From assembly GCF_001563475.1 (NCBI RefSeq), contig NZ_LPUT01000012.1, positions 186,001 to 250,000 on the forward strand: a DNA stretch of 64,000 nt, read 5' to 3'. This stretch comes from Sporosarcina sp. HYO08 (GTDB lineage Bacteria > Bacillota > Bacilli > Bacillales_A > Planococcaceae). Below the pieces are notes generated by a model. It ran no database searches. It had not been told where the DNA came from and saw nothing but the letters and a program-made list of their open reading frames with translations. Positions 5,695 to 20,436 of this stretch are shown one piece after another. The translations under genes and the position numbers were made by a program. How positions within the stretch are numbered: position 1 is the first letter of the stretch; each line of letters starts with the position of its first letter.

Positions 5695-5739
5695 ATCGTT
5701 CAAACATAGGCTAATGATATGTTAAGAAAGGATGGTCGC

Positions 5740-6822
5740 ATGTTTGGAACGATAACAGAATACATGGGGACAGCTTATACAGGTCTCGGCATTTCGCATA
5801 AATACGACAAACTCATTGCTGCAGCTTCGGAGACAGTTTTTCTTAAATGCCCGCCAACACATTCTTTGTCTGCGGTTTTAAATGAAGCGGCTATGCAGTT
5901 TGTTAAACGCGGATTTCACATTGATCGATTTATGAACCCTGTCCAGCCTGACAAAATAGACGCGATTTTTGTTAAGGATGCCAATGTTTTTATCATTCAA
6001 GCATCTCATCCCATAGCGCTCGAGCCAGCGGACATCGGCGGTAGACATAAAGTGATTAGCTATTACGATGTATACGATGAAAGGAAATTGCGCGAGCTCA
6101 ACGGGGTAATTGTAGAAAATTTGGAAACGGCGGAAGTGTCATTGAAAAAGGCATTGCAATCATTGCGCAAGGCAAAAAAAATTCACGATGATTGGGAACA
6201 GGTTAATATTGCCAGAATGATGTGGCCGCAGCATGAAACACTTATTCAGTCGTTAAAAGAAGAACTTTTCGGAAACATCCATTTGAATAAAGAAGCAACA
6301 GTTTCTCATAGACTGATCGGCTCCTTAACCTCCAGTGGAGCGCAAGATTTCATACCGTCTATTACGAAGCCTGTAGAGCGTAGAATGTTAATTAAAGGAC
6401 TTCCAGGAACAGGGAAATCGACGCTGATGAAAGCAGTTGGCGCCGAGGCGGAAAAACGAGGCTTTGATGTCTTGTACGGTTGGTGCGGGTTAGATCCTGC
6501 GGGCGTTGATCTCGTGCAAATTCCAGAGTTGTCGATTTGTATATTTGACGCAACAAAACCGCATGCTTATGATCCGGAACGTCCAGGGGATGAAATTCTC
6601 GACCTTGTTCATATGTGCGAGGAAAATGAAGAAGCAGAAGAAAAGATTATTGGGATTCAAGAAATATATTCAGAAGCAATTCTCGATGCGACCGGTTATA
6701 TGCAGGCGTATGCTCAATCTGAAAATAGTATGAAAGCAACAATGGATACGGCTATTATGCAACCTGCATTTGAAACGAAATCTCAAAAATTATTGGAGTA
6801 CGTTGGTGATGTGTTAAAATGA
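5740..6822 (+). CDS. P-loop NTPase with a degenerate N-terminal duplicate (PRK06851-like)
   Basis: This 360-residue protein has a Walker A motif, GLPGTGKST, at residues 220-228, followed by EAEKRGFDV and [20 protein letters not shown]. The N-terminal half repeats the same order ([14 protein letters not shown] near 34-47, [19 protein letters not shown]), but its P-loop has lost the Gly-Lys-Ser/Thr core. The whole is therefore a tandem duplication with one working nucleotide site. Related proteins in spore formers are annotated only as ATPase or nucleotide kinase, and no substrate is known. Start ATG 5740 follows AAAGGATG; an ATG at 5719 lies too close to its would-be site. It precedes kbl by 31 nt. 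Confidence 0.7.
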
Positions 6823-6853
6823 AAGCATCATCTGTTTGAAAGGAAAGATTATT

Positions 6854-8044
6854 TTGTCGAAAGTACTCCAAAACTTTTTAGAAACAAATTTAGCTGGGCT
6901 TCGCGAGCATGGACTTTATAACGAAATCGATACAGTAGAAGGTCCAAATGGCCCGGTCATTAAAATTCAAGGAAAAGACTTGATCAACTTATCATCTAAT
7001 AACTATCTTGGTCTTGCAACAGATGAGGACTTGAAACAGCTAGCGATCGAAGCGACGAAAAAATACGGCGTCGGTGCCGGTGCGGTACGTACAATTAATG
7101 GGACACTCGATATTCACATTAAGCTTGAAAAAAAGCTGGCTGAATTTAAAGGGACAGAAGCAGCAATCGCTTATCAATCAGGCTTTAACTGTAATATGGC
7201 AGCTATTTCCGCTGTGATGAATAAAAAAGATGCGATTCTTTCTGACGAATTAAACCACGCATCAATTATCGATGGATGCCGTCTCTCAGGTGCGAAAATT
7301 ATTCGCGTAAAGCATCAAGATATGGATGATTTACGTGCGAAAGCGAAAGAAGCAACAGAATCTGGCTTATACGAAAAAGTCATGTACATTACAGATGGCG
7401 TATTTTCGATGGACGGTAATATCGCAAACCTTCCAGAAGTCGTGGAGATTGCGAAAGAATACGATTTAATTACGTACGTTGATGACGCACACGGATCTGG
7501 TGTAACAGGTTTAGGAAAAGGAACTGTAAAACATTTCGGACTAGAAAAGGAAATTGATTTCCAAATCGGTACACTTTCTAAAGCGATTGGTGTGGTTGGC
7601 GGTTATGTAGCCGGTACGCAAGAGCTAATCGATTGGCTAAAAGTGCGTTCTCGTCCATTTTTATTCTCCACATCATTGCCAGCAGGCGACGTAGCGGCGA
7701 TTATGGGCGCTTTAGATAAAATTTCGTCATCCACAGAATTACATGACAAACTGTGGGAAAACGGTAATTATTTAAAAGAAGGCCTAAAAAAGTTAGGCTT
7801 TGATATCGGCAGATCTGAAACGCCGATTACACCTTGTATTATTGGTGAAGAAAAACTGACACAGCAATTTTCAAAACGGCTTGCTGAAGAAGGTGTTTAC
7901 GCGAAATCCATCGTCTTCCCGACAGTTCCACAAGGCACGGGACGTGTTCGCAACATGCCAACAGCAGCCCATACAAAAGAAATGCTTGATGAGGCACTCG
8001 CGATTTATGAAAAAGTTGGAAAAGAGCTAGGCGTTATTTCATAA
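6854..8044 (+). CDS. kbl: Glycine C-acetyltransferase (2-amino-3-ketobutyrate CoA ligase)
   Basis: This PLP enzyme splits 2-amino-3-oxobutanoate with CoA into glycine and acetyl-CoA, the second step of threonine catabolism. It has 396 residues, as usual. The alpha-oxoamine synthase signatures are [26 protein letters not shown], the DDAHGSG motif and [12 protein letters not shown], with the Schiff-base Lys at 243. The TTG start at 6854 has AAAGGAAAG 6 nt upstream; the in-frame TTG at 6836 lies before that site. The partner tdh is not adjacent but starts at 19477, beyond an 11-kb island. Confidence 0.95.
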
Positions 8045-8047
8045 AAT

Positions 8048-8076
8048 CAAAAAACCACCCAAGAGGTGGTTTTTTT
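8048..8076. terminator. Bidirectional terminator between kbl and the LysR gene
   Basis: AAAAACCACC pairs with GGTGGTTTTTT around a short loop. It serves kbl on the plus strand and the convergent LysR gene on the minus strand. Confidence 0.85.
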
Positions 8077-8086
8077 GATGCTTTTT

Positions 8087-8953
8087 TTAAATCGTTTTAA
8101 ATAATTTCTTCACGATCGCTGCGAAGTTTTTTGTTGCATGGGATGTTTGCTTGGTCATGCCGAGTCCGATAATACGGCACGCCTCTTTTTCGAATTCAAG
8201 CGCTGTAATACCATCAGGTGCACCTTTTAATACAAGTTCGGGACGGATATTAATGCCCAAATTTGCTTGTACTAACGCAATGATCGATTGATCGTCTGAC
8301 ACTTCATATTTCACGATGGGATTAATATTATGCTCGCTAAAAAAAGTAGCCGTTTCATGATCCCATCCTTTTTTGGGTTTGATCAGCGGGTACATTTCTA
8401 GTTGCTCTAAACGCATCTTTTGCTGCATTCGTAATTCGCTTTCATTGGATACAATGCAAAATAATTTATCTTTATGTAACGGGTGAAAATCGATGCACTT
8501 TTTCGAAGAGGCAATGGTAAAGCAACAATCCAATTCTCCTGATTGAACGGCGGCTTCCAAGTTCTCATAGTCGTTATCATAAATTTCAACGGTGATCTGG
8601 GGATATTTACGCTTAAACTCCTTGAGAATCATTGGCAGCCAATGGGTTGTGACACTTGCAAAAGTACCAATTCTAATGATCCCATTCTCCAATTCGTTTA
8701 GTGCAGAAGCTTCTTGCAGGAGAAGGTGGTGCGAATGCATAACGGCAAGTGTGTGCTTATGTATGATTTCTCCTTCACTAGTCAGTCGAATCCCCGATCG
8801 ATTGCGTATTAATAAATGTAATCCTAACTCCTCTTCAAGACTTTTAATCGCATGACTTACTGCGGATTGTGTGAGATTTAGTTCGTTGCCGGCATTTGTA
8901 ATGTTTTGCAATTGAACAACCTTATTAAAAATTTCATAGCGCTGAATCGTCAA
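8087..8953 (-). CDS. LysR-family transcriptional regulator of the catabolic island
   Basis: The 288-residue protein has an N-terminal winged helix-turn-helix (TNAGNELNLTQSAVSHAIKSLEEELGLHLLIRN, within residues 18-55) and a C-terminal substrate-binding domain that starts near 90 (GIIRIGTFASVTTHWLP). It is divergent from the aldehyde dehydrogenase gene at 9105, the usual arrangement for a LysR activator of the neighbouring operon. It probably senses the imino acid substrate or an intermediate. The start was placed at TTG 8953, with AAGGAG 13 nt upstream. GTG 8965 is too close to that site, and the in-frame ATG further up has none. Confidence 0.85.
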   Translation of the reverse strand: MTIQRYEIFNKVVQLQNITNAGNELNLTQSAVSHAIKSLEEELGLHLLIRNRSGIRLTSEGEIIHKHTLAVMHSHHLLLQEASALNELENGIIRIGTFASVTTHWLPMILKEFKRKYPQITVEIYDNDYENLEAAVQSGELDCCFTIASSKKCIDFHPLHKDKLFCIVSNESELRMQQKMRLEQLEMYPLIKPKKGWDHETATFFSEHNINPIVKYEVSDDQSIIALVQANLGINIRPELVLKGAPDGITALEFEKEACRIIGLGMTKQTSHATKNFAAIVKKLFKTI

Positions 8954-9053
8954 CTTAATTCCCACTCTCCTTACATGAAAACTATTAATACATATCATTA
9001 TAAACATTCGTTTTACTAATCTCAATTATCTAATTATACTGAAAGTGCGAGTT

Positions 9054-9104: not shown

Positions 9105-10628
9105 ATGAATGTGACGGTTGTAGTCAATCAATTTGAACGGGTGTTGCGAGATCAAACAGCAGTTCAACAAATGTATATAAATGGAAAATGGGTAACGAGC
9201 AGCTCCAATCAAACGCGAGAGATCTTAAATCCTGCAAATCAGGAAGTCATCGCAACAGTGACAGAGGCAGTTGCCGAAGAGGCTGACTTGGCGGTTGAGG
9301 CAGCAAAAAATGCCTTTTATAAAAATGGTTGGAAAAACGTGTATGCGCGAACAAGGGCAGATCTTCTGTTAAAGGTAGCTGAAAAGTTGAGCGAGCGCAA
9401 AGAAGAGTTTGCCATGCTCGAAACGTTGAATAACGGAAAAGTGTATGCGGACTCGCTTCAGGATGTAGACGATGCGATCAACCAATTTCAATACTATGCA
9501 GGACTTGCGACGAAGCCGCATGGACAAACGTACGAAGTGCCGGATGAAATTCAAGCAATGGTTGTCCGCGAACCAGTTGGGGTTGTAGCACAAATTGTTC
9601 CGTGGAATTATCCACTTGTCATGGCAGCACAAAAGATGTCAGCAGCTTTGGCGGCAGGATGCACAGTTGTGATTAAACCTGCATCACAAACACCGCTTAC
9701 GCTCATTCGGCTGTTTGAGATTTTAGATGAAGTCGGATTTCCAGCGGGTGTCGTTAACCTAGTACTCGGTTCTGGTTCGGTCATTGGAGATGTATTAGTA
9801 AATCATCCTGATGTCGACAAAATTTCCTTCACTGGCGGTACAGATACAGGAAAGCAAATTATGAAAGATGCTGCGAATACCGTTAAAAAGGTCGGTCTAG
9901 AGTTAGGCGGCAAATCTCCTAATATTGTTTTTGCAGATGCAGATTTTGAAACCGCTATCGATTATGCACTGCTTGGTATTTTTGCAGGACAAGGTCAAGT
10001 TTGTTCAGCAGGTTCGCGTCTCTTACTAGAAAAAAGCATCTATGACAAATTTGTTCCGGAGCTTGTCGCACGCGCTAAAAAAATTAAAGTGGGACCGGGC
10101 TGGGAAGAAGACACAGAAATGGGACCGCTCATCTCGCAGTCGCATATGGAAAATGTCCTGAACTATGTGAAAATTGGACTGGATGAAGGGGCATGGCTGC
10201 TATGCGGAGGGAATCGCATAGTAGATGGCGATCTTGCCAATGGGAACTATGTAGAGCCGACAATCTTGACGAATACGACGCCGGATATGCGTATTGTACA
10301 AGAAGAAATTTTTGGACCTGTACTTGTCATTCAAGTATTTGAAACGGAAGAGGAAGCCATTGAATTAGCGAACGGTACTGATTTTGGCCTTGCCGCTGCC
10401 GTATTTACAAACGATGGGGCGAAAGCACAGCGGGTCATTCGTAACCTGCGAGCAGGGATTACATGGATCAATGCTTACCATCCGACATTTAACGAAGCAC
10501 CTTGGAGCGGCTATAAACAAAGCGGGATCGGCGCGGATTTGGGCACATACGGATTTGAACAGTATTTATTGACGAAACAGATTAATATCGCCCTCGAAGT
10601 ACAACCGTCCGGCTGGTACAAAGGATGA
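9105..10628 (+). CDS. Aldehyde dehydrogenase, probably 2-oxoglutarate semialdehyde dehydrogenase
   Basis: The 507-residue protein is an NAD(P)-dependent aldehyde dehydrogenase. It has the cofactor motif VPWNYPLVMAAQKMSAALAAG, the general base Glu266 in GLELGGKSPN and the catalytic Cys300 in GQGQVCSAGSR. EIFGPVL and SGYKQSGIG are also present. General similarity is to betaine-aldehyde-type enzymes. Its place beside a DapA-family lyase and an imino acid dehydrogenase suggests oxidation of 2-oxoglutarate semialdehyde to 2-oxoglutarate, the last step of hydroxyproline breakdown. That substrate is inference. A GTG at 9111 is spaced better from AAGGGG than ATG 9105. Confidence 0.85.
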   Translation: MNVTVVVNQFERVLRDQTAVQQMYINGKWVTSSSNQTREILNPANQEVIATVTEAVAEEADLAVEAAKNAFYKNGWKNVYARTRADLLLKVAEKLSERKEEFAMLETLNNGKVYADSLQDVDDAINQFQYYAGLATKPHGQTYEVPDEIQAMVVREPVGVVAQIVPWNYPLVMAAQKMSAALAAGCTVVIKPASQTPLTLIRLFEILDEVGFPAGVVNLVLGSGSVIGDVLVNHPDVDKISFTGGTDTGKQIMKDAANTVKKVGLELGGKSPNIVFADADFETAIDYALLGIFAGQGQVCSAGSRLLLEKSIYDKFVPELVARAKKIKVGPGWEEDTEMGPLISQSHMENVLNYVKIGLDEGAWLLCGGNRIVDGDLANGNYVEPTILTNTTPDMRIVQEEIFGPVLVIQVFETEEEAIELANGTDFGLAAAVFTNDGAKAQRVIRNLRAGITWINAYHPTFNEAPWSGYKQSGIGADLGTYGFEQYLLTKQINIALEVQPSGWYKG

Positions 10629-10658
10629 GTTCACTTGAAAGCGTAAGGAGGCGGCAGC

Positions 10659-11849
10659 ATGAATAGCTTTGATGTTGTTGTGGTCGGCGCCGGCATTATT
10701 GGCTGCAGTGTTTCTTATCATTTGTCCAAGGCGGGCTACAGCGTTGCGCTAGTTGAAAAAGGCGACATTGCCCACGGGACATCTAGCCGCTGTGATGCCG
10801 TCGCGCTCATTTGTGATAAGAAGCCGGGGATTGACACAGAAATTGGTTTTAAAAGTATTCAACTCTATAAAGAATTAGCAAAAGAATTCTCATTTGACTT
10901 TGAGTTTTCCACAAGAGGAAGTTTGTACGTTTGTGAAACAGAGCAAGAATTGGAAATTGCAAGCGGTTACGTAGCGGAACAAAGAGCTGACGGATATGAC
11001 ATGAAGATGGTCGATCAGAAAGAACTGCTTGAAATTGAACCTTATTTAGCTAAAGATTTGAAAGGCGGAATTTGGACAGAAGTCGATTCGACGATGAACC
11101 CCTACTTAGTTTGCTTCGCTTTTGTGGAAGAAGCTAAGAAATATGGTTTGAAGCTCTTTACGCATCACGAGGTAAAAGGGGTTACAAAAGGTCCGGACGG
11201 GCGCGTACAATCCGTCATTACTGATAGAACAACGCTCCATACAAATCGGGTTGTAAACTGTGCCGGAGTTTGGGCAGCTAAACTTGGTCAAATGGTTGGC
11301 ATTGATATACCTATTCAGCCCCGTAAAGGGATGGTGCTCATCTCAGAAAAAACAAAGCCAGTCGTTAGTCAAAAAGTGCATGAATTCGGCTATATGCTCT
11401 CGAAGTTTGAAGATATTAAATACAAACGCAACGTTAGCAAACTCGTTGAAGAGAATAATATTGCGTTTACGATTGAACCGACGGAAGCGGATAACTTTTT
11501 ACTTGGCGGTCATCGTGCATTTAAAGGATATGACATTAGTTCTGAAAACGATGTCATCCGAGGAATTGCTGAACGAGCCATCCGCTTCTTGCCAATTTTA
11601 AAAGATATTAGCTGTATTCGAGCCTATGCGGGAATACGACCATGGGTGCCGGATCATTTGCCGATCGTCTCCGAAGTTGAAGAAGTGCCGGGCTTTTATA
11701 TTGCCGGCGGGCATGAAGGAGACGGCATCAGTATGGCGCCGATTACAGGAAGAATGATTACACAGCTAATTTCAGGAGAAGAAACAGATTTTAACATAGA
11801 TCGATTGAATTTCTCACGCTACAAACAATTGGAGCGAGTATCTAGTTAA
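10659..11849 (+). CDS. FAD-dependent D-amino/imino acid dehydrogenase, HcnC/LhpB-like subunit
   Basis: This 396-residue DAO-family flavoprotein has the dinucleotide motif VVVGAGIIGCSVSYHL at residues 6-21, the family stretch GDIAHGTSSRCDAV, and a C-terminal FAD region GFYIAGGHEGDGISMAPITG. Relatives are glycine oxidase, HcnC and the beta-type subunit of D-hydroxyproline dehydrogenase. HcnA-like, HcnB-like and BFD-like genes lie 1.8-3.6 kb downstream in the same operon, so it is probably the catalytic subunit of a multi-subunit, quinone- or carrier-linked dehydrogenase and not an oxygen-using oxidase. It follows AAGGAGGCGG and starts 30 nt after the aldehyde dehydrogenase. Confidence 0.85.
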   Translation: MNSFDVVVVGAGIIGCSVSYHLSKAGYSVALVEKGDIAHGTSSRCDAVALICDKKPGIDTEIGFKSIQLYKELAKEFSFDFEFSTRGSLYVCETEQELEIASGYVAEQRADGYDMKMVDQKELLEIEPYLAKDLKGGIWTEVDSTMNPYLVCFAFVEEAKKYGLKLFTHHEVKGVTKGPDGRVQSVITDRTTLHTNRVVNCAGVWAAKLGQMVGIDIPIQPRKGMVLISEKTKPVVSQKVHEFGYMLSKFEDIKYKRNVSKLVEENNIAFTIEPTEADNFLLGGHRAFKGYDISSENDVIRGIAERAIRFLPILKDISCIRAYAGIRPWVPDHLPIVSEVEEVPGFYIAGGHEGDGISMAPITGRMITQLISGEETDFNIDRLNFSRYKQLERVSS

Positions 11850-11892
11850 TGAAAAACTATTAAACTACTGACAAATATTGGAGGAATGAAAA

Positions 11893-12792
11893 ATGTATAA
11901 ACCAACTGGAATGATCCCAGCAATGCCAACACCATTCGATGAGCAAGGAAAAGTGGATTTTGAAGCATATCGCGGACTCATCGAATACTTAATTGAAGGC
12001 GGCGTTCACTGCTTGCTAGCCGGCGGAAGTACAGGTGAATATTCACTTATGTCTATGGAGGAACGCAAAGCAGTTTTAAAAGCGGCGGTTGATTTTTCAG
12101 GCGGGCGTGTTCCAATCATGGCCGGAACGAGTGCGCATCGAACGGACGAAACGCTTGAACTAACGAAATATGCAGCGGAAATTGGAGCGGATTGCGCGCT
12201 TGTCATCACACCTTACTACATGCAGACGAGTGAGGAAGGCATTATTGATTATTTTAAAACGGTTGCTGAACAGTCTGGCATTGGCATTGTTATTTACCAT
12301 TATCCAGGTGCGACAAATGTCGAGCTGTCACCGGAGCTAATTGCTAAGTTAAGTAAAATTGATGGCATCGTAGGCGTCAAAAATACAACAGATCAAGAGC
12401 ATACATGTAAAGTCATTGGCCTGACAAAAGATCAGGAAGATTTCGCTGTCCTTACTGGATACGAGCACCTTATTTTGCCAACATTGGCTGTTGGTGGAGA
12501 TGGCGCAACAGGAATTATTCCGAACTTGATTCCAAAAGAAATTGTGGCGCTTTATGATCTATTTACAAAAGAAAAGGATATTGATGCGGCAATCGCTCTT
12601 AACCAAAAACTTCTTCCGCTTTACGACTATGTTGAAGTTGAGCCAAGCCCAGGTCCGGTTAAGGCTGGTCTAGATTTAATCGGATTGAAAGGTGGAACAG
12701 TTCGTGCACCGCTCGTTCCGGCATCAGATGAATTAAAGGAGAAAATGAAAAAGACACTTTCCGAGCTTGGCTACGAAGTAAGTCTTGTATAA
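11893..12792 (+). CDS. DapA-family lyase/deaminase (LhpC-like)
   Basis: The 299-residue class I aldolase-fold protein has the DapA pattern GTYEY-like GGSTGEYSLMS, the catalytic Tyr135 in IYHYPGATN and the Schiff-base Lys163 in GVKNTT. DapA itself would have a GRTG/GIKEATGD context and a lysine-pathway neighbourhood, which are absent. In hydroxyproline operons this family member (1-pyrroline-4-hydroxy-2-carboxylate deaminase) releases ammonia and gives 2-oxoglutarate semialdehyde. The neighbouring dehydrogenase and aldehyde dehydrogenase fit that role. A sugar-acid aldolase such as a KDG-type enzyme cannot be excluded. The ATG follows TTGGAGGAATG. Confidence 0.83.
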   Translation: MYKPTGMIPAMPTPFDEQGKVDFEAYRGLIEYLIEGGVHCLLAGGSTGEYSLMSMEERKAVLKAAVDFSGGRVPIMAGTSAHRTDETLELTKYAAEIGADCALVITPYYMQTSEEGIIDYFKTVAEQSGIGIVIYHYPGATNVELSPELIAKLSKIDGIVGVKNTTDQEHTCKVIGLTKDQEDFAVLTGYEHLILPTLAVGGDGATGIIPNLIPKEIVALYDLFTKEKDIDAAIALNQKLLPLYDYVEVEPSPGPVKAGLDLIGLKGGTVRAPLVPASDELKEKMKKTLSELGYEVSLV

Positions 12793-12800
12793 CTGATCAT

Positions 12801-12850
12801 GGGGGGCTGTTCTAGAAGTGCCTGGCTCTTCTTTTTAGGACAGTCCCTCC
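12801..12850. repeat. GTGCCTGG palindrome element inside the island operon
   Basis: The core AGAAGTGCCTGGCTCTTC is flanked by GGGGCTGTTCTA on the left and TAGGACAGTCCC on the right, which are inverted repeats. It belongs to the same family as 27633-27683 and 33149-33204. Here it sits between the DapA-like gene and the racemase-like gene, where it may act as a partial terminator or a processing site. Confidence 0.7.
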
Positions 12851-12888
12851 CTCTTTATATAAAACCAATTTAAAGGTAGGGATGAGCG

Positions 12889-13677
12889 ATGACAACAATG
12901 ACAACATGTCAAAGAGAATATGGCTTTCTTGACAAAGGATACAAATCGAAAGTACACATGAAAAAGGGACAGTATATATCGGGTTTTTCTGTCGGGATTT
13001 TGCACTTGGATGATTGCTGGTATCCAATTTTGCCTGGTAATGTGGCAAATTTATCTACATATGATTTTCCAGTCGTCTTGAAAGTCGTACCGAACTGTAA
13101 CCAAGAAAGAATTCACGCGGGAGATCCGACGCTTGTGGATGATGTCATCCGGGCGGCAAAACAATTTGAAGCGGAAGGAGCTCGCGTCATTGTTGGTGCA
13201 TGCGGCTTCTTTGGAAACTTCCAAGAGCAAGTTGCTAATGCAGTCGATATTCCCGTTTTTCTATCGAGTGTTGTACAGCTTCCTTGGATTAAAACAGGAT
13301 TAAAATCTGATCAGCTTGTAGGTATGCTGACAGCAGACAGCAATGGTATTACACCTTCCTTATATAAAAGCTGTGGGATAGAAAATCCAGATTATGTTGT
13401 CGTTAAAGACTTGGGAAGATTGCCGGAATTCTCTGCAATTATCGAAAGCAGAGGAAGCTTTGACAACGATGTCGTTCGCGAAGAGGCTGTGAATGCGGCG
13501 AAAGAACTCGTGCGCGACAACCCGAATATCAGGGCCATTCTGCTTGAATGCAGCGATCTTCCGCCTTACGCAGCGGATATCCAACGGGCAGTCGGACTTC
13601 CGGTTTATGATTTTATCACGATGATCCGATGGGCTCATATGGCTACGGCACAAAGACCTTATCACGGCTTTATTTAG
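12889..13677 (+). CDS. Asp/Glu racemase-superfamily protein, candidate imino acid epimerase
   Basis: The 262-residue protein belongs to the Asp/Glu/hydantoin racemase superfamily. Two pseudo-symmetric cysteines lie in the expected places: Cys105 in VGACGFFGNF and Cys221 in LLECSDLPPYA. Other conserved stretches are SVGILHLD near the start, VANAVDIPVFLSS and LPVYDFITMIRWAH. Enzymes of this fold invert alpha carbons by a two-base thiol mechanism. In this operon it stands where hydroxyproline pathways normally carry a proline-racemase-family 2-epimerase, so conversion of an L-imino acid to the D form is a reasonable guess. A hydantoin-type or maleate isomerase role is possible. Start ATG 12889 follows AAGGTAGGG. 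Confidence 0.72.
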   Translation: MTTMTTCQREYGFLDKGYKSKVHMKKGQYISGFSVGILHLDDCWYPILPGNVANLSTYDFPVVLKVVPNCNQERIHAGDPTLVDDVIRAAKQFEAEGARVIVGACGFFGNFQEQVANAVDIPVFLSSVVQLPWIKTGLKSDQLVGMLTADSNGITPSLYKSCGIENPDYVVVKDLGRLPEFSAIIESRGSFDNDVVREEAVNAAKELVRDNPNIRAILLECSDLPPYAADIQRAVGLPVYDFITMIRWAHMATAQRPYHGFI

Positions 13678-13689
13678 GAGGTTTTCGCA

Positions 13690-13977
13690 ATGAGCGATGA
13701 AAAAACAATTGTCTGCAGATGTGAAGAAATATCGTTTCAAACGATCAGTGACACTGTCCGGGAATATAGCTGCTCTTCCAGAGAAGTAAAGCTTCGTACA
13801 AGAGCGGGGATGGGGTATTGCGGCGGAAGAACATGCCGTCATATGATCGATACAATTGTTGCAGGGATTAATCAAGAACCGATTGCAGACGAAATTCAAT
13901 TGAGCTATCGTCCACCTGCTCGTCCATTAACTTTCGGGGTCTTAGGAGGTATGCAACATGACAATGAGAGTCGTTAA
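13690..13977 (+). CDS. BFD-like [2Fe-2S] protein
   Basis: The 95-residue protein has four cysteines at 9, 11, 44 and 49 (VCRCEE, GYCGGRTC), the spacing of the bacterioferritin-associated ferredoxin domain. In HcnB and related dehydrogenase subunits this domain is often fused to the flavoprotein C-terminus. Here it is a free gene, and the flavoprotein at 14278 lacks it. It probably carries electrons within the dehydrogenase complex. It starts 12 nt after the racemase-like gene with TAGGAGG in the gap. Its 3' end overlaps the next gene by 20 nt. Confidence 0.8.
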   Translation: MSDEKTIVCRCEEISFQTISDTVREYSCSSREVKLRTRAGMGYCGGRTCRHMIDTIVAGINQEPIADEIQLSYRPPARPLTFGVLGGMQHDNESR

Positions 13978-14281
13978 TCATCCGGTACTCGGAAAACTTC
14001 CAGAACAGAATCGTATAACGATCCGCTTCAACGGCCAACCCTATGAAGCTTACGAAGGGGACACCATTGCCTCAGCCTTAATGGCTCAAGGAGTGAAAAC
14101 ACTCAGGAAGCATGAAATGAGCGGAGAAGGACGCGGCATCTACTGCAATATCGGCCATTGTTTTGAGTGCCGTGTGCAGGTGGGAGATCGGAAAGTAGTA
14201 CGTGCTTGTTTGACACCGGTTTCAGAAGGCATCGAAATCCATTCACTCACTGCTTTTGTGAAAGGAGGTCAAACAAAATGA
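13958..14281 (+). CDS. HcnA-like [2Fe-2S] ferredoxin-fold subunit
   Basis: This 107-residue beta-grasp ferredoxin has cysteines at 63, 68, 71 and 84 (YCNIGHCFEC, RACLTPV), the C-X4-C-X2-C-X12-C arrangement of plant-type [2Fe-2S] subunits. It matches the gamma-type subunit of HcnABC and LhpBEF dehydrogenases in size and pattern. It overlaps the BFD gene by 20 nt and the HcnB-like gene by ATGA, which points to translational coupling within one complex. AGGAGG stands 8 nt before ATG 13958. Confidence 0.82.
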   Translation: MTMRVVNHPVLGKLPEQNRITIRFNGQPYEAYEGDTIASALMAQGVKTLRKHEMSGEGRGIYCNIGHCFECRVQVGDRKVVRACLTPVSEGIEIHSLTAFVKGGQTK

Positions 14282-15510
14282 TCGATTTACTTGTCGTGGG
14301 AGCGGGTCCCGCAGGGTTAAGTGCGGCAATCGCAGCAGCTGAACAAGGACTGAAAGTAAAAGTACTTGATGAATTTCCGAAAGTAGGGGGGCGCCTTCTC
14401 GGGCAATTGCATCAGGAGCCAAGCGGAGAATGGTGGAACGGCATTGAAATGGGTGAGAAGTTGCATCAGAAAGCGCGTCTCGAAGGAGTGAACATCCAGT
14501 GTGAAGTATCTGTCTCAGATATCAGTCGGACAGACTTTGGATGGAGCGTCTACACATCTGTGGGAATGATAAAAGCCAAAAATCTTTTACTGGCCACGGG
14601 TGCATCAGAAACGGCTATTCCGCTTCCGGGCTGGACGCTTCCGGGTGCAATTTCAATTGGAGCGGCGCAAGTTATGGGAAATGTCCATCGTGTCAAACCT
14701 GGTAATTCGTGCGTGATTATCGGTGCCAATGTACTTTCTATAGCGATCGCAAATGAATTGATGTTATGCGGCGTAAAAGTAAAGGAAATTATTATTCCTG
14801 AAACGGGACCGGTCGCAAAAGATGCGGGCGTGCCTGAAAAAGTGATGGCATCCTTAATGAGGCTGACCCATTTGGCGCCAAATGCATTTTTGCGTCAAGC
14901 AGGAAAATTTGGGAAGTTTGTAAGTCCGAAAGTTGCTGCTCAGTTTTTCCCAAAAAATGGCATTCGGGTCTTGGGTATACCGATCCGGGTTAAGAAAGCT
15001 GCCATTGAAATTATTGGGGAAGGACAGGCGACTGGCGTTCGAACAGTGGCTGTTACACCAGATGGTAAAAGAATTCAGGGCACCGAACAAGTGACAGAAG
15101 CAGATTTTGTCTGCATCGCCGGCGGATTAGCGCCGATGTCAGAGCTTGCGTCAATTGCCGGATGCTCATTCAAATATGTAGAAGAACTCGGGGGACATAT
15201 ACCTCTACATAGTGAACGAATGGAAACGGCTGTGCCGGGACTTTATGTAGCAGGGAATATAACGGGTGTTGAAAGTGCTAAAGTGGCAATGGCACAAGGG
15301 AAAGTAGCGGGCCTCACGGTTGCATTCAATACGAATGGAGCCTCAAAGAAGACTGAAATGTTAGTGAAATGTGCTTTGGATGATGTAAGAAAAACGAGGG
15401 CAAATGCCCTGATCGAGTTTCAGCCGGGTATTGTAGAAGCGCGTGAACGAATTTATGTTCAATTTGAGCAAGAGAGAATTGCGGTGAAACAAGCGATAAC
15501 GGTTTCCTAA
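14278..15510 (+). CDS. HcnB-like NAD(P)/FAD-dependent oxidoreductase subunit
   Basis: This 410-residue flavoprotein has the N-terminal FAD motif LLVVGAGPAGLSAAIAA, a second Rossmann region (CVIIGANVLSIAIANEL) near residue 145 and a late ATP/FAD motif, VPGLYVAGNITGVESAKVAMAQGK. It matches the alpha-type subunit of the HcnABC/opine oxidase/D-hydroxyproline dehydrogenase group. Its C-terminus has no CxCE...C-X4-C cluster, which is supplied by the gene at 13690. The start at ATG 14278 follows AAAGGAGG and overlaps the previous stop. A much longer frame from 14167 is a shadow within the upstream gene. Confidence 0.83.
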   Translation: MIDLLVVGAGPAGLSAAIAAAEQGLKVKVLDEFPKVGGRLLGQLHQEPSGEWWNGIEMGEKLHQKARLEGVNIQCEVSVSDISRTDFGWSVYTSVGMIKAKNLLLATGASETAIPLPGWTLPGAISIGAAQVMGNVHRVKPGNSCVIIGANVLSIAIANELMLCGVKVKEIIIPETGPVAKDAGVPEKVMASLMRLTHLAPNAFLRQAGKFGKFVSPKVAAQFFPKNGIRVLGIPIRVKKAAIEIIGEGQATGVRTVAVTPDGKRIQGTEQVTEADFVCIAGGLAPMSELASIAGCSFKYVEELGGHIPLHSERMETAVPGLYVAGNITGVESAKVAMAQGKVAGLTVAFNTNGASKKTEMLVKCALDDVRKTRANALIEFQPGIVEARERIYVQFEQERIAVKQAITVS

Positions 15511-15529
15511 AACAGGTTGGAGGTACATC

Positions 15530-16129
15530 ATGAAAATTTTAGTAATTGGAGCGAAAGGTACACTAGGTTCAGCAGTTGTTGAAGAACTGAAAGATATTGG
15601 CGAGATTATACAGGCAAGCAGAACTCACGCAGATATAAAAGTGGACATCACATCACCGGAAAGCATTCAGCAAATGTTTGAAGAAGTGGGTGAAATAGAC
15701 GCGATCGTCTGCACGGCAGGAGCCGCCCATTTCGGACCGGTCGAGAAAATGACTCCTGAATTAAACCGTATTGCAGTAGAAAGTAAACTGTTAGGTCAAA
15801 TCAATCTTGTGCTGCTTGGTTTGCCATACATCCGTGACAACGGCAGTATCACATTGATAACCGGCATTTTAATGGATGATCCGATCGTTAATGGGGCATC
15901 ATCCGCCATGGCAAATGGAGGTGTCCGTGCCTTTGTCTCATCAGCTGCAATCGAACTGCCGAGAGGGATTCGGATTAATAGCGTAAGCCCGAATGTACTG
16001 GAAGAATCATTGGAAAAATATGGTCCATCCTTTGAAGGTTTTAAAGCGGTTCCGGCGAAAGATGCGGCTCTTGCTTTTAGAAAAAGTGTGTTAGGTGCAC
16101 AAACGGGGCAGAGTTATACGGTTTACTGA
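15530..16129 (+). CDS. Short SDR-like protein without the Tyr-Lys pair
   Basis: The 199-residue Rossmann protein opens with ILVIGAKGTLGSAVVEEL and keeps CTAGAAHFGP in place of the usual NNAG. Where classical SDRs have YxxxK there is NGASSAMANG (121-130), and the usual Ser is Thr111. This resembles a short SDR subgroup (PRK07578-like) that lacks the classical catalytic tetrad. It may bind NAD(P)H without standard alcohol dehydrogenase chemistry. The role in this operon is unknown. It starts 19 nt after the HcnB-like gene, with TTGGAGG before the ATG. Confidence 0.75.
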   Translation: MKILVIGAKGTLGSAVVEELKDIGEIIQASRTHADIKVDITSPESIQQMFEEVGEIDAIVCTAGAAHFGPVEKMTPELNRIAVESKLLGQINLVLLGLPYIRDNGSITLITGILMDDPIVNGASSAMANGGVRAFVSSAAIELPRGIRINSVSPNVLEESLEKYGPSFEGFKAVPAKDAALAFRKSVLGAQTGQSYTVY

Positions 16130-16154
16130 TGATGAATGCAAAGGAGAGAAGGCG

Positions 16155-16850
16155 ATGGAAAACGGAGAGATTGTTGTTATTACTGGAGCTGGTAGCGGTC
16201 TTGGGGCTTCACTTGCAAGGAAGTATTCGTCTCATGGGACACATGTCTGTTTACTTGGCAGGACACGGTCGAAGCTCGAAAAAATAGCTTCTGTACTTGA
16301 AAGTGATCATTCCATTTATGAAGTAGATATTAGTTCAAAGGAAAGCGTTAGTAAAGTGTTTAGGGAAATTAAAATAGCGCATGGTTCGATTGATTGTTTA
16401 ATCAATAATGCGGGTGTCGGCATGTTTAAAGATGTCGGAGAAATTACAGAAGAAGAGATCCATCAAATGATTGATATCAATTTAAAAGGAACGATTTTTT
16501 GTACGCAAGAAGTACTGCCGGTCATGAAGGAACAAAACAGCGGAAGCATTGTAAATATTATTTCCGGATCTGGAAAAGTAGCAAAAGCCTCTGAAACCGT
16601 CTATAGTGCAAGCAAATTTGGGGTGAGAGGCTTTTCAGAAGCTTTATCCGAGGAGTTGAAAAATACGGAAATCCATATTTATGGTGCATACATGGGGAAT
16701 ATGAAAACGAACTTATGGGAGGAAGGATATTCCGAAAATCAATTAGCCAATTATATGAACCCAGATGATGTAGCCGAAATTATATTTGAAAATTTAAAGC
16801 CTCGTAAACATTTGAGAGTGACAGACATTACGATTATGAATCATCGATAA
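16155..16850 (+). CDS. Short-chain dehydrogenase/reductase
   Basis: This 231-residue classical SDR has the cofactor motif TGAGSGLGASLARKY, NNAG at 85-88 and the catalytic Tyr150 and Lys154 in YSASKFG. An Arg in LLGRTRSK after beta-2 favours NADP(H). The substrate is unknown. In the context of the island it could oxidise or reduce a hydroxyl or keto group of an intermediate. Start ATG 16155 follows AAAGGAGAG; an upstream in-frame ATG overlaps the previous gene and has no site. Confidence 0.83.
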   Translation: MENGEIVVITGAGSGLGASLARKYSSHGTHVCLLGRTRSKLEKIASVLESDHSIYEVDISSKESVSKVFREIKIAHGSIDCLINNAGVGMFKDVGEITEEEIHQMIDINLKGTIFCTQEVLPVMKEQNSGSIVNIISGSGKVAKASETVYSASKFGVRGFSEALSEELKNTEIHIYGAYMGNMKTNLWEEGYSENQLANYMNPDDVAEIIFENLKPRKHLRVTDITIMNHR

Positions 16851-16935
16851 TTTTGACTTAAATTATAAAGGTTTACATTGCAGCCTAGTGGATGACAGCT
16901 TAGATTATTCAAATTGATAAAACGGGGGAATGATC

Positions 16936-18471
16936 ATGAGCGATTTTTTTAATTGGCTAAGCGGAATGGTATGGAATCAATATTTTATTTATTGTTTCCT
17001 AGGCGTGGGATTGTTTTTCTCAGTCGCGACGAGATTTGTTCAACTAACACACTTAAAAGATATGGTCAAATTAATGTTTCAGCGAAAGAGCTCGGACAGC
17101 GGTGTTTCCTCCTTCCAGGCAATCTCCATGTCATTAGGAAGCCGGGTTGGAACTGGGAATATTGCGGGCGTTGCGACCGCGATTGCATTAGGCGGACCGG
17201 GCGCGATTTTTTGGATGTGGCTTATGGCGTTTTTGGGCGCAGCGACGTCTTTCATCGAAATCACTTTGGGACAAGTATATAAAAGTAAGCAAGATGGAGA
17301 ATACCGGGGAGGTCCTTCCTATTACATCGAGAAGGGTCTGGGTCTAAAGAAATTTGCATTTGCTTATGCTGTTTTAACAATTGTCGCAAACGGTTTCTTA
17401 CTGATGAATATCCAGTCCAACACAGTAGCGGTCTCAATGAAGGAAGCTTTTGGCATTAACCCGCTGTTCACAGGAATCCTGATGGCAGTATTGTTGGCGA
17501 TGATTGTTTTTGGCGGCGTAAAAAGAATTGCAAAAGTTTCAGAGTTTGTCGTTCCATTTATGGCAATTGGCTATTTACTAGTTTGTCTTATCATACTTGC
17601 TGCTAATGTCACTGCGATTCCAGCAGTGTTCCAATTGATCTTTTCGAGTGCTTTTGGTGCCGAAGCAACCTTTGGGGGAATTATAGGATCGGCTATTGCA
17701 TGGGGTGTTCAACGAGGCTTCTTCTCTAACGCTGCTGGATCAGGAGGGGAAACTTTCGAAGGATCGGCTGCAGAAGTATCTCATCCAGCTAAACAAGGGC
17801 TTGTTCAGGCATTGGCCGTCTATATTGACACATGGGTTATTTGTTCCGCAACTGCGTTTATGATTCTAATCACGGGCATGTATAATGTGCACCCATCCGG
17901 CTCAGAAGCGCTTGCCACAAATGTGCCGGGTGTAGAAGCGGGATCTATGAACGTACAGCTAGCTGTTGATTCAGTATTTACAGGATTCGGGTATCTATTT
18001 ATAGCTCTAGCTTTATTTTTCTTCTGTTTTACAACGATGATTTCCTACTATTATAAGTCTGAAACAAGCTTAGCATATATTCACCGAAGCATGAGAGGTG
18101 GAAAGAAATTGTTGGGAGCAGTATTGAAAATTGGCGTTCTATTCTTTGTGGTAACGGGTAGCATTATTACGGCTAGTACAGCTTGGACACTTGGCGATAT
18201 TGGGTTGGGGAGTATGGCGTATTTAAATATTGTTGCGATTCTACTTTTGACAAAGCCAGCATTGAAAGTGTTAAAAGATTATAGGGAGCAAAAAAGAGCT
18301 GGAATTGATCCGGTATTTGATCCCGTCAAACTAGGCATTGAAAATGCGGATTATTGGGAGAATGAATATCCTGCCAATCAAACCAAGAGCAAGCAACCAA
18401 CTACGAAAAAGACTTATGGCAAAGAGAAGGTACCAACGCTTGTTCAGGCTAGTCCGACAGACAAATTATAA
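16936..18471 (+). CDS. AGCS-family sodium:amino acid symporter
   Basis: The protein has 511 residues and about 10-11 membrane helices. Alanine or glycine:cation symporter signatures are GSRVGTGNIAGVATAIALGGPGA near 75, GGPSYYIEKGLG near 135 and AWGVQRGFFSNAAGSGG near 255. The family imports small neutral amino acids with Na+ or H+. Its position in the island suggests it takes up the substrate, for example a proline derivative. The C-terminal 40 residues are polar and cytoplasmic. ATG 16936 is preferred because GGGGGA lies 6 nt before it; ATG 16930 touches that site. Confidence 0.88.
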   Translation: MSDFFNWLSGMVWNQYFIYCFLGVGLFFSVATRFVQLTHLKDMVKLMFQRKSSDSGVSSFQAISMSLGSRVGTGNIAGVATAIALGGPGAIFWMWLMAFLGAATSFIEITLGQVYKSKQDGEYRGGPSYYIEKGLGLKKFAFAYAVLTIVANGFLLMNIQSNTVAVSMKEAFGINPLFTGILMAVLLAMIVFGGVKRIAKVSEFVVPFMAIGYLLVCLIILAANVTAIPAVFQLIFSSAFGAEATFGGIIGSAIAWGVQRGFFSNAAGSGGETFEGSAAEVSHPAKQGLVQALAVYIDTWVICSATAFMILITGMYNVHPSGSEALATNVPGVEAGSMNVQLAVDSVFTGFGYLFIALALFFFCFTTMISYYYKSETSLAYIHRSMRGGKKLLGAVLKIGVLFFVVTGSIITASTAWTLGDIGLGSMAYLNIVAILLLTKPALKVLKDYREQKRAGIDPVFDPVKLGIENADYWENEYPANQTKSKQPTTKKTYGKEKVPTLVQASPTDKL

Positions 18472-18491
18472 TTTAGAGCGGGGGAAGCATT

Positions 18492-19241
18492 GTGAGATTA
18501 AAAGATAAAGTTGCTATAGTAACAGGTGCAGGGTCAGGAAATGGTGCAGCAATTGCCAAAGGATTTCTTGCGGAAGGAGCCAAAGTTGTATTTGCCGATA
18601 TCAATGAAGACAATGCCGAGCAGCAAGCAATCGATTCAGGTTATGATCCAAAAAAGTGGATTGCAGTAAAAGTGGATGTGGCGGATTCTGCTTCTGTTAA
18701 ATCTTTAATTTCAAAAACTTTGGAAGCGTTTTCTAGAGTAGACGTAATGATTGCGAACGCTGGGATCACCATTCGAAAACCGTTTCTAGAATTGACTGAA
18801 GCAGATTATGATAAAGTGATGGACGTAAATGCAAAAGGTGTATTTCTATGCAGCCAAGAAGCGGCTAGATGTATGGTCGAGCAAGGCGGTGGAAGTATTG
18901 TTCACATCTCATCTACGACGTCTGTATTGGCAGAAGGAAATGCGGTACAGTACGGTGCTTCTAAAGGAGCGGTTGCCTCGATGACCCGACATATGGCAAT
19001 GGACCTTGGAGCGCAGAATATTCGTGTAAATGCGATTGCTCCGGGAACCATTCAAACGAATTTGACCGGAGGGCGTTTAGGGGCGGAAGGTGTACTTGAA
19101 AAAGAGGCGGAGTTAACGATGCTTAAAAGAATTGGTCAGCCTCAGGATGTCGTAGGCGCTGCACTTTTTTTAGCATCTGACGATTCTTCTTTTATAACAG
19201 GGACACATATTTTTGTAGATGGCGGCTATTCGGTGAAATAA
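18492..19241 (+). CDS. Short-chain dehydrogenase/reductase (classical)
   Basis: This 249-residue SDR has TGAGSGNGAAIAKGF, Asp36 after beta-2 in FADINED (favouring NAD), NAG at 89-91, a catalytic Ser near 141, Tyr154 and Lys158 in QYGASKGA, and a C-terminal SSFITGTHIFVDGGYSVK. It is the last gene of the island operon and ends at a strong terminator. The substrate is not predictable from sequence. It uses GTG at 18492 after GCGGGGAAGC. Confidence 0.87.
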   Translation: MRLKDKVAIVTGAGSGNGAAIAKGFLAEGAKVVFADINEDNAEQQAIDSGYDPKKWIAVKVDVADSASVKSLISKTLEAFSRVDVMIANAGITIRKPFLELTEADYDKVMDVNAKGVFLCSQEAARCMVEQGGGSIVHISSTTSVLAEGNAVQYGASKGAVASMTRHMAMDLGAQNIRVNAIAPGTIQTNLTGGRLGAEGVLEKEAELTMLKRIGQPQDVVGAALFLASDDSSFITGTHIFVDGGYSVK

Positions 19242-19250
19242 AGGGGAAAC

Positions 19251-19298
19251 AAGAAGCACTGAAACAATTTTTTTTGTTTCAGTGCTTCTTGTTTTTTT
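19251..19298 (+). terminator. Strong terminator at the end of the island
   Basis: AAGAAGCACTGAAACAA (from 19251) and its exact complement TTGTTTCAGTGCTTCTT (to 19290) form a 17-bp stem, followed by a T-run. It marks the right end of the catabolic operon. Confidence 0.9.
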
Positions 19299-19388: not shown

Positions 19389-19476
19389 GGATTAAAGTTG
19401 TTATATCAAGTAATTAATTATTAGTTAATACAAATGTACATCTGGGTAGAACATGAAAGAAAGCGAGGAGTTTAAA

Positions 19477-20436
19477 ATGAAGAAGATTATTGTCACTGGC
19501 GCGCTTGGACAAATCGGATCTGAATTGATCGCAAAACTGCGTTCAGAATATGGAACAGACAATGTTTTGGCAACGGATATTCGACGTCCTCAATCACCAA
19601 CAGGCGGGCCATTTGAAATTCTAGACGTCACGGATGCAAAGAGAATGCATGAGCTTGCGAAAGCGTTTGGGGCAGATACAATGATGCATATGGCCGCATT
19701 GCTGTCGGCAACAGCTGAAGAACAGCCGCTATTCGCGTGGAACTTGAATATGGGTGGGCTTGTCAATGCGCTTGAAGTTTCCCGTGAACTGAATCTTCAA
19801 TTTTTCACTCCGAGCTCAATTGGTGCATTTGGACCGTCCACACCTAAAAAGGGAACGCCGCAAGATACGTTGCAGCGTCCAACAACGATGTATGGTGTCA
19901 ACAAAGTCGCTGGAGAATTACTCTGTGACTATTACTTCCATAAATTTGGTTTAGATACGCGCGGTGTTCGTTTCCCAGGGCTTATTTCGAATGTAGCGAA
20001 ACCAGGCGGCGGAACGACAGACTACGCAGTTGATATTTACTACAAAGCGATTGAAGAAGGTAAATACACTTCTTATATTGCAGAAGGTACCTACATGGAT
20101 ATGATGTATATGCCGGATGCACTGCAAGCGATTGTCGATTTAATGGAAGCAGATCCTGCAAAGTTAGTTCACCGCAATGCATTTAATGTTACGGCGATGA
20201 GCTTCGAACCATCGGAAATTGCAGCGTCTATCCGGAAGCATATTCCTACGTTTGAAATTGATTACGCCGTAGACCCAGTGCGTCAAGCAATTGCCGAGAG
20301 TTGGCCGGATGCAATCGATGCCTCTGCGGCTATGACAGAGTGGGGATTCAAAGCCGAATATGATTTGGACAAAATGACAGAAGATATGCTTGCGGAGTTG
20401 AAAGTGAAATTGAAAAGAGAATCTGAAGCATCTTAA
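19477..20436 (+). CDS. tdh: L-threonine 3-dehydrogenase, SDR/epimerase type
   Basis: The 319-residue extended SDR oxidises L-threonine to 2-amino-3-oxobutanoate with NAD+. It starts with the motif [16 protein letters not shown], has Asp34 after beta-2 and the catalytic Tyr139 and Lys143 in [13 protein letters not shown]-like [10 protein letters not shown] and [11 protein letters not shown] are typical of the GalE-like Tdh family and unlike the zinc-type Tdh of B. subtilis. It completes the threonine-to-glycine route with Kbl (6854-8044), although 11.4 kb separates the two. Start ATG 19477 follows GAGGAG; the upstream in-frame ATG 19453 does not. Confidence 0.9.

What the first reader, a model, noticed from the sequence alone, without database searches (positions are those of the whole stretch)
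12889..13677. Asp/Glu-racemase-superfamily protein as a possible non-orthologous imino acid 2-epimerase
The island has the dehydrogenase, deaminase-type lyase and semialdehyde dehydrogenase of hydroxyproline breakdown but no proline-racemase-family epimerase. Instead there is a protein with the two-Cys racemase fold (Cys105, Cys221). It may replace the usual epimerase, or the pathway may start from another D-imino acid.
Basis: inference. Interest (0 to 1): 0.55.

Follow-up and report, generated by a model that had tools for sequence, protein, structure and literature searches.

The report
Unassigned epimerase in amino-acid breakdown operon
A bacterial gene cluster that looks like the hydroxyproline-breakdown pathway carries a different kind of mirror-image-switching enzyme where the usual one sits, and comparison with relatives suggests it is a parallel pathway for another, still unknown amino acid.

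Summary
The gene at 12889-13677 is real: 262 aa, Asp/Glu-racemase superfamily, uncharacterised subfamily PRK07475, two invariant cysteines (C105, C221). It lies inside one gene unit (9105-19241) between kbl and tdh.

The window island is a diverged parallel version of that set.

The swap itself is supported. In a census of Bacilli, 4 of 4 places with this island's dehydrogenase type carry the racemase and no proline-racemase gene nearby; of 46 places with the hydroxyproline type, 38 carry a proline-racemase gene and none the racemase. The full racemase operon is in 23 of 80 fetched loci; the dehydrogenase lies near the racemase in 45 of 80, in three phyla. Of the 23 full-operon genomes, 12 have no proline-racemase gene above cut-off.

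Best reading: the protein is the operon's cofactor-independent 2-epimerase, feeding a paralogous flavin/iron-sulfur dehydrogenase; the substrate is probably not trans-4-hydroxyproline and remains unknown. Kinship to algal DMSP lyase leaves an elimination reaction open.

The parts
12889..13677 (+). Asp/Glu-racemase-superfamily protein of subfamily PRK07475; proposed two-Cys 2-epimerase (C105, C221)
9105..10628 (+). NAD(P) aldehyde dehydrogenase family protein (507 aa); 46% identical to the C27 hydroxyproline-cluster paralogue
   Evidence: PF00171, 594 bits
10659..11849 (+). DAO-family FAD subunit (beta) of a heteromeric dehydrogenase; 45% identical to the C27 paralogue
   Evidence: PF01266, 239 bits
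11893..12792 (+). DHDPS-family Schiff-base lyase; Tyr and Lys of the motif kept, IYHYPGATN where hydroxyproline-cluster members mostly have YNNPxD/T
   Evidence: PF00701, 269 bits
13690..13977 (+). small BFD-like [2Fe-2S] protein (95 aa) of the dehydrogenase
   Evidence: PF04324, 43 bits; 52% to C27 paralogue
13958..14281 (+). small Fer2_4 [2Fe-2S] protein (107 aa) of the dehydrogenase
   Evidence: PF13510, 98 bits; 56% to C27 paralogue
14278..15510 (+). Pyr_redox (alpha) subunit of the dehydrogenase; ORF listed from 14167, start taken here at ATG 14278
   Evidence: PF07992; 48% to C27 paralogue
15530..16129 (+). short-chain dehydrogenase 1 (PRK07578)
   Evidence: NF005754, 280 bits, cut-off 167
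16095..16850 (+). short-chain dehydrogenase 2; the start is probably the later ATG at 16155
   Evidence: PF00106
16930..18471 (+). AGCS sodium:amino-acid symporter
   Evidence: PF01235 492 bits; TIGR00835 440 bits, cut-off 272.65
18492..19241 (+). short-chain dehydrogenase 3
   Evidence: PF13561 230 bits
8087..9025 (-). divergent LysR-type regulator, likely regulator of the unit
   Evidence: PF03466, PF00126; LysR homologues near the racemase in 15 of 80 loci
19247..19294 (+). 20-pair hairpin with T tail closing the unit
8049..8075 (.). two-way terminator-like hairpin between kbl and the LysR gene

Best explanation
The protein is a cofactor-independent, two-cysteine racemase/epimerase that inverts the carbon next to the carboxylate of an amino (or imino) acid brought in by the AGCS symporter, making the D-form that the neighbouring heteromeric FAD/[2Fe-2S] dehydrogenase oxidises to an imine or 2-oxo acid. 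The DHDPS-family lyase then acts on that 2-oxo acid through a lysine Schiff base and yields an aldehyde, which the aldehyde dehydrogenase oxidises. The operon is a parallel, diverged version of the 4-hydroxyproline pathway with a non-orthologous epimerase, and its substrate is most likely not trans-4-hydroxyproline. Shown by sequence: gene content, family membership, two-Cys fold, conserved linkage, mutual exclusion with proline-racemase genes at the dehydrogenase locus. Inferred: the reaction, the order of steps, the substrate class.
For: Two Cys invariant in 44 of 44 rows; AlphaFold2 model pLDDT 93, pTM 0.89, best structural matches allantoin/hydantoin racemases, Z 17.1-17.5. The racemase gene sits inside the dehydrogenase gene set, between lyase and [2Fe-2S] gene, with no terminator-like site on its strand before it. 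Census of Bacilli: 398 genomes, 47 with a dehydrogenase beta subunit, 50 places; 4 of 4 places of the window's type have the racemase and no proline-racemase gene, 0 of 46 of the hydroxyproline type have the racemase and 38 of 46 have a proline-racemase-family gene (plus 6 and 17 for the own genome). Full operon in 23 of 80 loci; w-type dehydrogenase within 9 kb in 45 of 80, in Bacillota, Spirochaetota and Thermodesulfobacteriota. The gene just upstream is the lyase in 25 or the dehydrogenase in 19 of 73. Own genome keeps a separate full hydroxyproline cluster. Lyase signature differs: A in 33 of 34 racemase-operon rows, D or T in 32 of 34 hydroxyproline-side rows.
Against: No activity is known for any PRK07475 protein. 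The 4-of-4 census group is small and related (two of the four look like close relatives). 35 of 80 loci have no such dehydrogenase near by this test, so the racemase also serves other pathways. In some genomes a trans-3-hydroxyproline-dehydratase-like or proline-racemase-like gene lies close (L078, L090, L102, L109, L131), or aconitase X (4 of 80), which keeps a hydroxyproline-type substrate possible. The nearest eukaryotic kin, Alma1, is a lyase.
Confidence: 0.62

Rival explanations
1. One reading: the protein is a non-orthologous trans-4-hydroxy-L-proline 2-epimerase and the island is a second hydroxyproline pathway.
For: Same enzyme classes as the 4HypE pathway named in PMC4113996 (passages): DAAO, DHDPS, ALDH. 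12 of 23 genomes with the full operon lack a proline-racemase-family gene above cut-off, so there the racemase is the operon's only candidate epimerase.
Against: The window's genome already has a full hydroxyproline cluster with two Cys-Cys proline-racemase-family genes, and 11 of 23 full-operon genomes have such genes too. The lyase is only 28% identical to the C27 lyase and has a different active-site signature. Neighbours MMSDH and class III aminotransferase have no place in that pathway.
Confidence: 0.12
2. The protein is a lyase, not a racemase: like its eukaryotic kin Alma1 it pulls the alpha proton off and expels a leaving group from the beta carbon; the rest of the operon handles the product.
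For: PRK07475 is named as the closest bacterial subfamily of the algal DMSP lyase Alma1, and the motif DCGF/NCGF is shared in part (ACGF here) (PMC10349084, passages). MMSDH and omega-aminotransferase neighbours fit three-carbon beta-substituted acids. A dimethylglycine-dehydrogenase-like gene, ETF and purU in Alphaproteobacteria, and methyltransferases and BCCT in some anaerobes, point to methylated compounds.
Against: The same paper states that the prokaryotic homologues do not have DMSP lyase activity. A lyase does not explain the exchange with proline-racemase genes. Second motif ECSD here, not ECTE/ECTQ.
Confidence: 0.13
3. The protein racemises a common small amino acid (alanine-like) so that both forms can be used, and the link to the dehydrogenase is only that of a general D-amino acid pathway.
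For: AGCS and NSS (SNF) symporters and, in L082, alanine dehydrogenase lie near; RidA and 2-hydroxyacid dehydrogenase next to the set in L125 fit an acyclic 2-imino acid.
Against: Does not explain the DHDPS-family lyase and aldehyde dehydrogenase, both kept in all 23 full operons.
Confidence: 0.1

Closest known systems
trans-4-hydroxy-L-proline pathway (4HypE, D-hydroxyproline dehydrogenase, Pyr4H2C deaminase, alpha-KGSA dehydrogenase)
   Same: Heteromeric DAO-family dehydrogenase, DHDPS-family lyase and aldehyde dehydrogenase in one operon, with an epimerase gene beside the dehydrogenase.
   Different: Epimerase from an unrelated superfamily; lyase of another subfamily (28% to C27 copy); dehydrogenase beta subunit of another clade (45%); three SDRs and an AGCS symporter; a complete ordinary copy exists elsewhere in the genome.
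PRK07475 / NF005679 subfamily of Asp/Glu/hydantoin racemases
   Same: Scores over the curated cut-off; two Cys in ACGF and ECSD motifs.
   Different: The family is annotated only as hypothetical protein; no function known to compare with.
Alma1 DMSP lyase of algae
   Same: Same superfamily; the paper calls PRK07475 its closest bacterial subfamily; two-Cys site, xCGF motif.
   Different: ECSD rather than ECTE/ECTQ; the bacterial group is stated to lack DMSP lyase activity.
Allantoin and hydantoin racemases
   Same: Best structural matches of the model (Z 17.1-17.5, about 200 residues, 3.1-3.4 A).
   Different: 9-23% sequence identity over the aligned residues; unrelated neighbourhood.
Flavin-containing opine dehydrogenase (OdhABC, Nox/Oox)
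   Same: Kin of the heteromeric dehydrogenase by the same subunit plan; one paper groups opine and D-hydroxyproline dehydrogenases together.
   Different: Opine dehydrogenase sequences were not compared here by name; the window's DAO subunit matches Ti-plasmid DAO proteins only at about 24%.

Membership tests
Asp/Glu/hydantoin racemase superfamily (PF01177) | Score above the Pfam cut-off | tested here: met
   42 bits, cut-off 31
Asp/Glu/hydantoin racemase superfamily (PF01177) | Two active-site Cys at the equivalent places | tested here: met
   C105 and C221 invariant in 44 of 44, aligned with both Cys of 2EQ5
Asp/Glu/hydantoin racemase superfamily (PF01177) | Racemase or epimerase activity | not testable with these tools
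   needs enzyme assay
PRK07475 (NF005679) | Score above the curated cut-off | tested here: met
   269.3 bits, cut-off 231
Cysteate racemase CuyB (NF052483) | Score above the curated cut-off | tested here: not met
   24 bits, cut-off 190
Amino acid racemase TIGR00035 | Score above the curated cut-off | tested here: not met
   20.9 bits, cut-off 93.1
Proline racemase / 4-hydroxyproline 2-epimerase family (PF05544) | Score above the Pfam cut-off | tested here: not met
   the only Pfam match is PF01177; PF05544 matches in the genome are on C27 only
trans-4-hydroxyproline operon | Dehydrogenase, DHDPS-type lyase and aldehyde dehydrogenase together | tested here: met
trans-4-hydroxyproline operon | Proline-racemase-family epimerase in the cluster | tested here: not met
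trans-4-hydroxyproline operon | Lyase of the deaminase (Pyr4H2C) subfamily | tested here: inconclusive
   28% to C27 copy; differs from hydroxyproline-cluster lyases at one motif site, but those are themselves varied
Alma1-type DMSP lyase | DCGF/NCGF and ECTE/ECTQ motifs around the two Cys | tested here: not met
   ACGF and ECSD in P0001, motifs from PMC10349084

The most novel reading that the evidence does not exclude
The operon breaks down an opine-like N-(1-carboxyalkyl) omega-amino acid (for example an N-carboxyalkyl beta-alanine): the racemase inverts the carboxyalkyl stereocentre, the dehydrogenase (kin of opine dehydrogenases) splits it into a 2-oxo acid and an omega-amino acid, the lyase and aldehyde dehydrogenase take the 2-oxo acid, and the often adjacent class III aminotransferase and MMSDH take the omega-amino acid to acyl-CoA. 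This would be a new catabolic pathway with the first assigned function for PRK07475.
Probability: 0.1. Interest if true: 0.8.

Novelty: new variant of a known kind. Interest (0 to 1): 0.5.

Why it matters
PRK07475 is a widespread family without an assigned function, and the bacterial sister group of the algal enzyme that releases DMS. A conserved operon that places it at the epimerase step of a pathway gives a direct way to find its reaction. If confirmed, two unrelated racemase folds have been recruited to the same step in front of sister dehydrogenases, and the parallel operon would reveal a catabolic substrate used by soil and gut Bacillota. It also warns against annotating such clusters as hydroxyproline pathways.

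Tried and rejected
Hydroxyproline as the likely substrate: lowered, because of the separate C27 cluster. Loss of the DapA arginine as a sign against hydroxyproline: at first noted, then dropped, since most hydroxyproline-cluster lyases lack it too (D 25, T 7, V 1, R 1 of 34); the surviving difference is A against D/T. DMSP lyase: not supported by motif or by the paper. Cysteate racemase and TIGR00035: below cut-offs. Hydroxylysine as a substrate: one search gave listings only, nothing that linked to this operon. Literature on a racemase of this family in such an operon: searches (listings; passages read from PMC10349084, PMC4575208, PMC4113996, PMC5395565 only); none of the listings showed one, but only open-licence papers are held. 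Name comparison with Ti-plasmid opine oxidases through one search was too distant to say more. The structure searches listed no family of known imino-acid specificity, which excludes nothing.

Rows dropped or handled apart: in 7 of 80 loci (L103, L118, L123, L143, L146, L147, L150) my ORF caller gave no racemase ORF; they are in the locus counts but not in the 73 of the nearest-gene count. L142 counts as without dehydrogenase although one search shows a short overlapping DAO ORF. Some census stretches were cut by contig ends (L237, L238, L262, L270, L276). The two own-genome places of the census were judged, not by the script. Only the best 80 of 411 relatives were kept. Aminotransferase and other neighbour names rest on family scans of a few representatives and on clustering for the rest.

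Full report
Observation. The ORF 12889-13677 is a 262-aa protein with a ribosome site just upstream. It belongs to PF01177 (42 bits, cut-off 31) and to NCBIfam PRK07475 (269 bits, cut-off 231), a subfamily named only 'hypothetical protein'. Ten of ten homologues from other loci that I scanned also match PRK07475 above its cut-off. Cys105 and Cys221 are invariant in 17 of 17 and in 44 of 44 rows.

Anatomy of the island. From 9105 to 19241 all genes lie on the + strand: aldehyde dehydrogenase, DAO-family FAD subunit, DHDPS-family lyase, the racemase, a BFD-like and a Fer2_4 [2Fe-2S] protein, a Pyr_redox subunit, two SDRs, an AGCS symporter and a third SDR. A LysR gene diverges at 8087-9025. A 20-pair hairpin with a T tail follows the last gene (19247-19294) and a two-way terminator-like site separates kbl from the LysR gene (8049-8075); no terminator-like site on the + strand lies between 9105 and the racemase gene (the total number of sites is not above chance, 11 found, 12.2 expected; a weak + strand site at 13590-13605 lies inside the racemase gene itself). 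The unit lies between kbl and tdh. In 22 of the 30 listed loci of the genus kbl is within the 1.5-kb flank of tdh; own is not one of them, so the island seems to be inserted in a kbl-tdh gap. Base composition does not stand out.

The genome has a second, complete set. PF05544 (proline racemase family) has three matches in the genome, all on contig C27. There (L004) lie two 345-aa genes with both Cys motifs (MCGH, SPCGTG; read from the translation), a third 304-aa gene without them, a heteromeric dehydrogenase (400, 407, 113, 99 aa), a DHDPS-family lyase, an aldehyde dehydrogenase, an NhaC-like antiporter and a sigma-54-type regulator: the ordinary hydroxyproline cluster as described in PMC4113996 (passages). 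Island against C27, the identities are: aldehyde dehydrogenase 46%, DAO 45%, BFD 52%, Fer2_4 56%, Pyr_redox 48%, lyase 28%. The island is a parallel, diverged version, so it need not serve hydroxyproline.

The epimerase gene is exchanged along with the dehydrogenase type. I searched the window's DAO protein in 398 genomes of the class: 47 genomes, 50 places with E up to 1e-90. Identity falls in two groups with a gap between 73% and 47%. I fetched all 48 places outside the own genome with 6 kb on each side where the contig allowed and mapped them by tblastn: 3 of 3 of the window type have the racemase and none a proline-racemase-family gene; of 45 of the other type, 37 have a proline-racemase-family gene and none has the racemase. 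With the own genome's two places this makes 4 of 4 against 0 of 46 for the racemase (if the places were independent, 1 in 230,300; they are not, as the four include close relatives). So the racemase stands where the epimerase stands in hydroxyproline operons.

Breadth. A scan of 84,980 species genomes with A2 kept the best 80 of 411 loci. The full core (aldehyde dehydrogenase, DAO, lyase, Pyr_redox) is in 23 of 80, all in named Bacillales genera such as Oceanobacillus, Domibacillus, Neobacillus, Staphylococcus, Lysinibacillus. A w-type DAO gene (over 250 bits) lies within 9 kb in 45 of 80, in Bacillota, Spirochaetota and Thermodesulfobacteriota. On a tree of 81 racemase rows the label 'DAO nearby' needs 11 changes against 26.4 in shuffles: the link is old and clustered, with losses or gains. 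The gene directly upstream of the racemase is the lyase in 25 and the DAO in 19 of the 73 loci in which my ORF caller found the racemase. Of the 23 full-operon genomes searched for PF05544, 11 have a match above cut-off and 12 do not; the own genome is not among these 23 and has three. So the operon works in genomes with no proline-racemase gene, and it also coexists with hydroxyproline clusters.

What else travels with it. A class III aminotransferase cluster is present in 30 of 80 loci and in 16 of the 23 full operons (list); in L077 it is PRK07678 (820 bits, cut-off 488) next to a CoA-acylating methylmalonate-semialdehyde dehydrogenase (640 bits, cut-off 448.5). The own genome has this pair 130 kb away on the same contig (C12:63478-66302). 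By family knowledge the pair would turn a beta-amino acid into an acyl-CoA; this is not tested. In L125 the set includes RidA, a 2-hydroxyacid dehydrogenase and an aminotransferase; in L126 an acyl-CoA dehydrogenase, ETF genes and an aldehyde dehydrogenase closest to acetylating ones; L092, L107 and L126 have an SNF-family symporter. RidA points to an acyclic imine; aconitase X (4 of 80), a trans-3-hydroxyproline-dehydratase-like gene (below its family cut-off) near L078, L090 and L102 and a proline-racemase-like gene in L131 point to imino acids. These leads conflict, so I do not name a substrate. In other lineages the racemase sits with trimethylamine-methyltransferase-like genes and BCCT (L049) or, on alphaproteobacterial plasmids, with amino-acid ABC transporters, and in three of the seven regions read (L066, L068, L072) also with an 814-aa FAD oxidoreductase; ETF and purU genes lie near in two of them (L066, L068).

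The lyase. In 34 racemase-operon rows the motif is YxYPxAT with A at one site in 33 and N in one; in 34 rows of the hydroxyproline side that site is D in 25, T in 7, V in 1 and R in 1, the R being the own C27 copy. The Schiff-base Lys and the Tyr are kept in both. The racemase operon's lyase is thus a separate group, which fits another substrate but does not prove it.

The protein itself. AlphaFold2 on 44 sequences gives pLDDT 93.0 and pTM 0.89. VIA-align ranks allantoin and hydantoin racemases first (Z 17.1-17.5, about 201-207 residues, 3.1-3.4 A), then OpaE, aspartate and glutamate racemases and arylmalonate decarboxylase; Foldseek agrees on the superfamily. C105 follows a strand and starts a helix, C221 follows another strand, the arrangement of this fold. 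I could not measure the Cys-Cys distance, as no coordinates were given.

Mechanism. Two facing Cys in this fold normally remove and return the alpha proton. The best reading is therefore: AGCS uptake, 2-epimerisation by this protein, oxidation of the D-form by the heteromeric dehydrogenase, lyase step on the 2-oxo acid, aldehyde oxidation. Only the parts, the fold and the linkage are shown; the reaction is inferred. The main rival is a lyase: PMC10349084 (passages) calls PRK07475 the closest bacterial subfamily of the algal DMSP lyase and says that it lacks that activity; PMC5395565 (passages) describes the proposed alpha-proton abstraction and beta-elimination.

Novelty. Searches for PRK07475 (one paper) and for such operons listed no function for it. 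Only open-licence papers are held. I rate it a new variant of a known kind: a hydroxyproline-like pathway plan with a non-orthologous epimerase and an unknown substrate.

Noticed in passing
window 6836-8044 and 19453-20436: kbl and tdh flank the island; in 22 of 30 listed loci of the genus (own included, not one of the 22) kbl lies within 1.5 kb of tdh, so the island appears inserted between them.
   Followed up: partly
L004 14392-15306: The third proline-racemase-family gene of the C27 hydroxyproline cluster lacks both catalytic Cys motifs, yet a similar gene is kept beside the intact one in several relatives (L235, L238, L243, L244, L247, L254).
   Followed up: no
L004 17024-17905: The C27 lyase has YNFPDRIG, unlike all other hydroxyproline-side lyases in the census; it may have been replaced in this genome.
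   Followed up: no
L049 2019-13422: In one anaerobe two PRK07475 genes lie among two trimethylamine-methyltransferase-like genes, a BCCT transporter, a corrinoid protein, a methyltransferase and a two-part aconitase X.
   Followed up: partly
L066 1760-10725; L068 6031-18330: In two alphaproteobacterial plasmid regions the racemase lies near an 814-aa FAD oxidoreductase, ETF genes, an amino-acid ABC transporter and purU, which suggests N-demethylation linked to folate.
   Followed up: no
window 5719-6822: A 367-aa ATPase-like gene next to kbl looks similar to L048:1005-2132, which is also near kbl and the racemase operon in Lysinibacillus macroides (read from translations).
   Followed up: no
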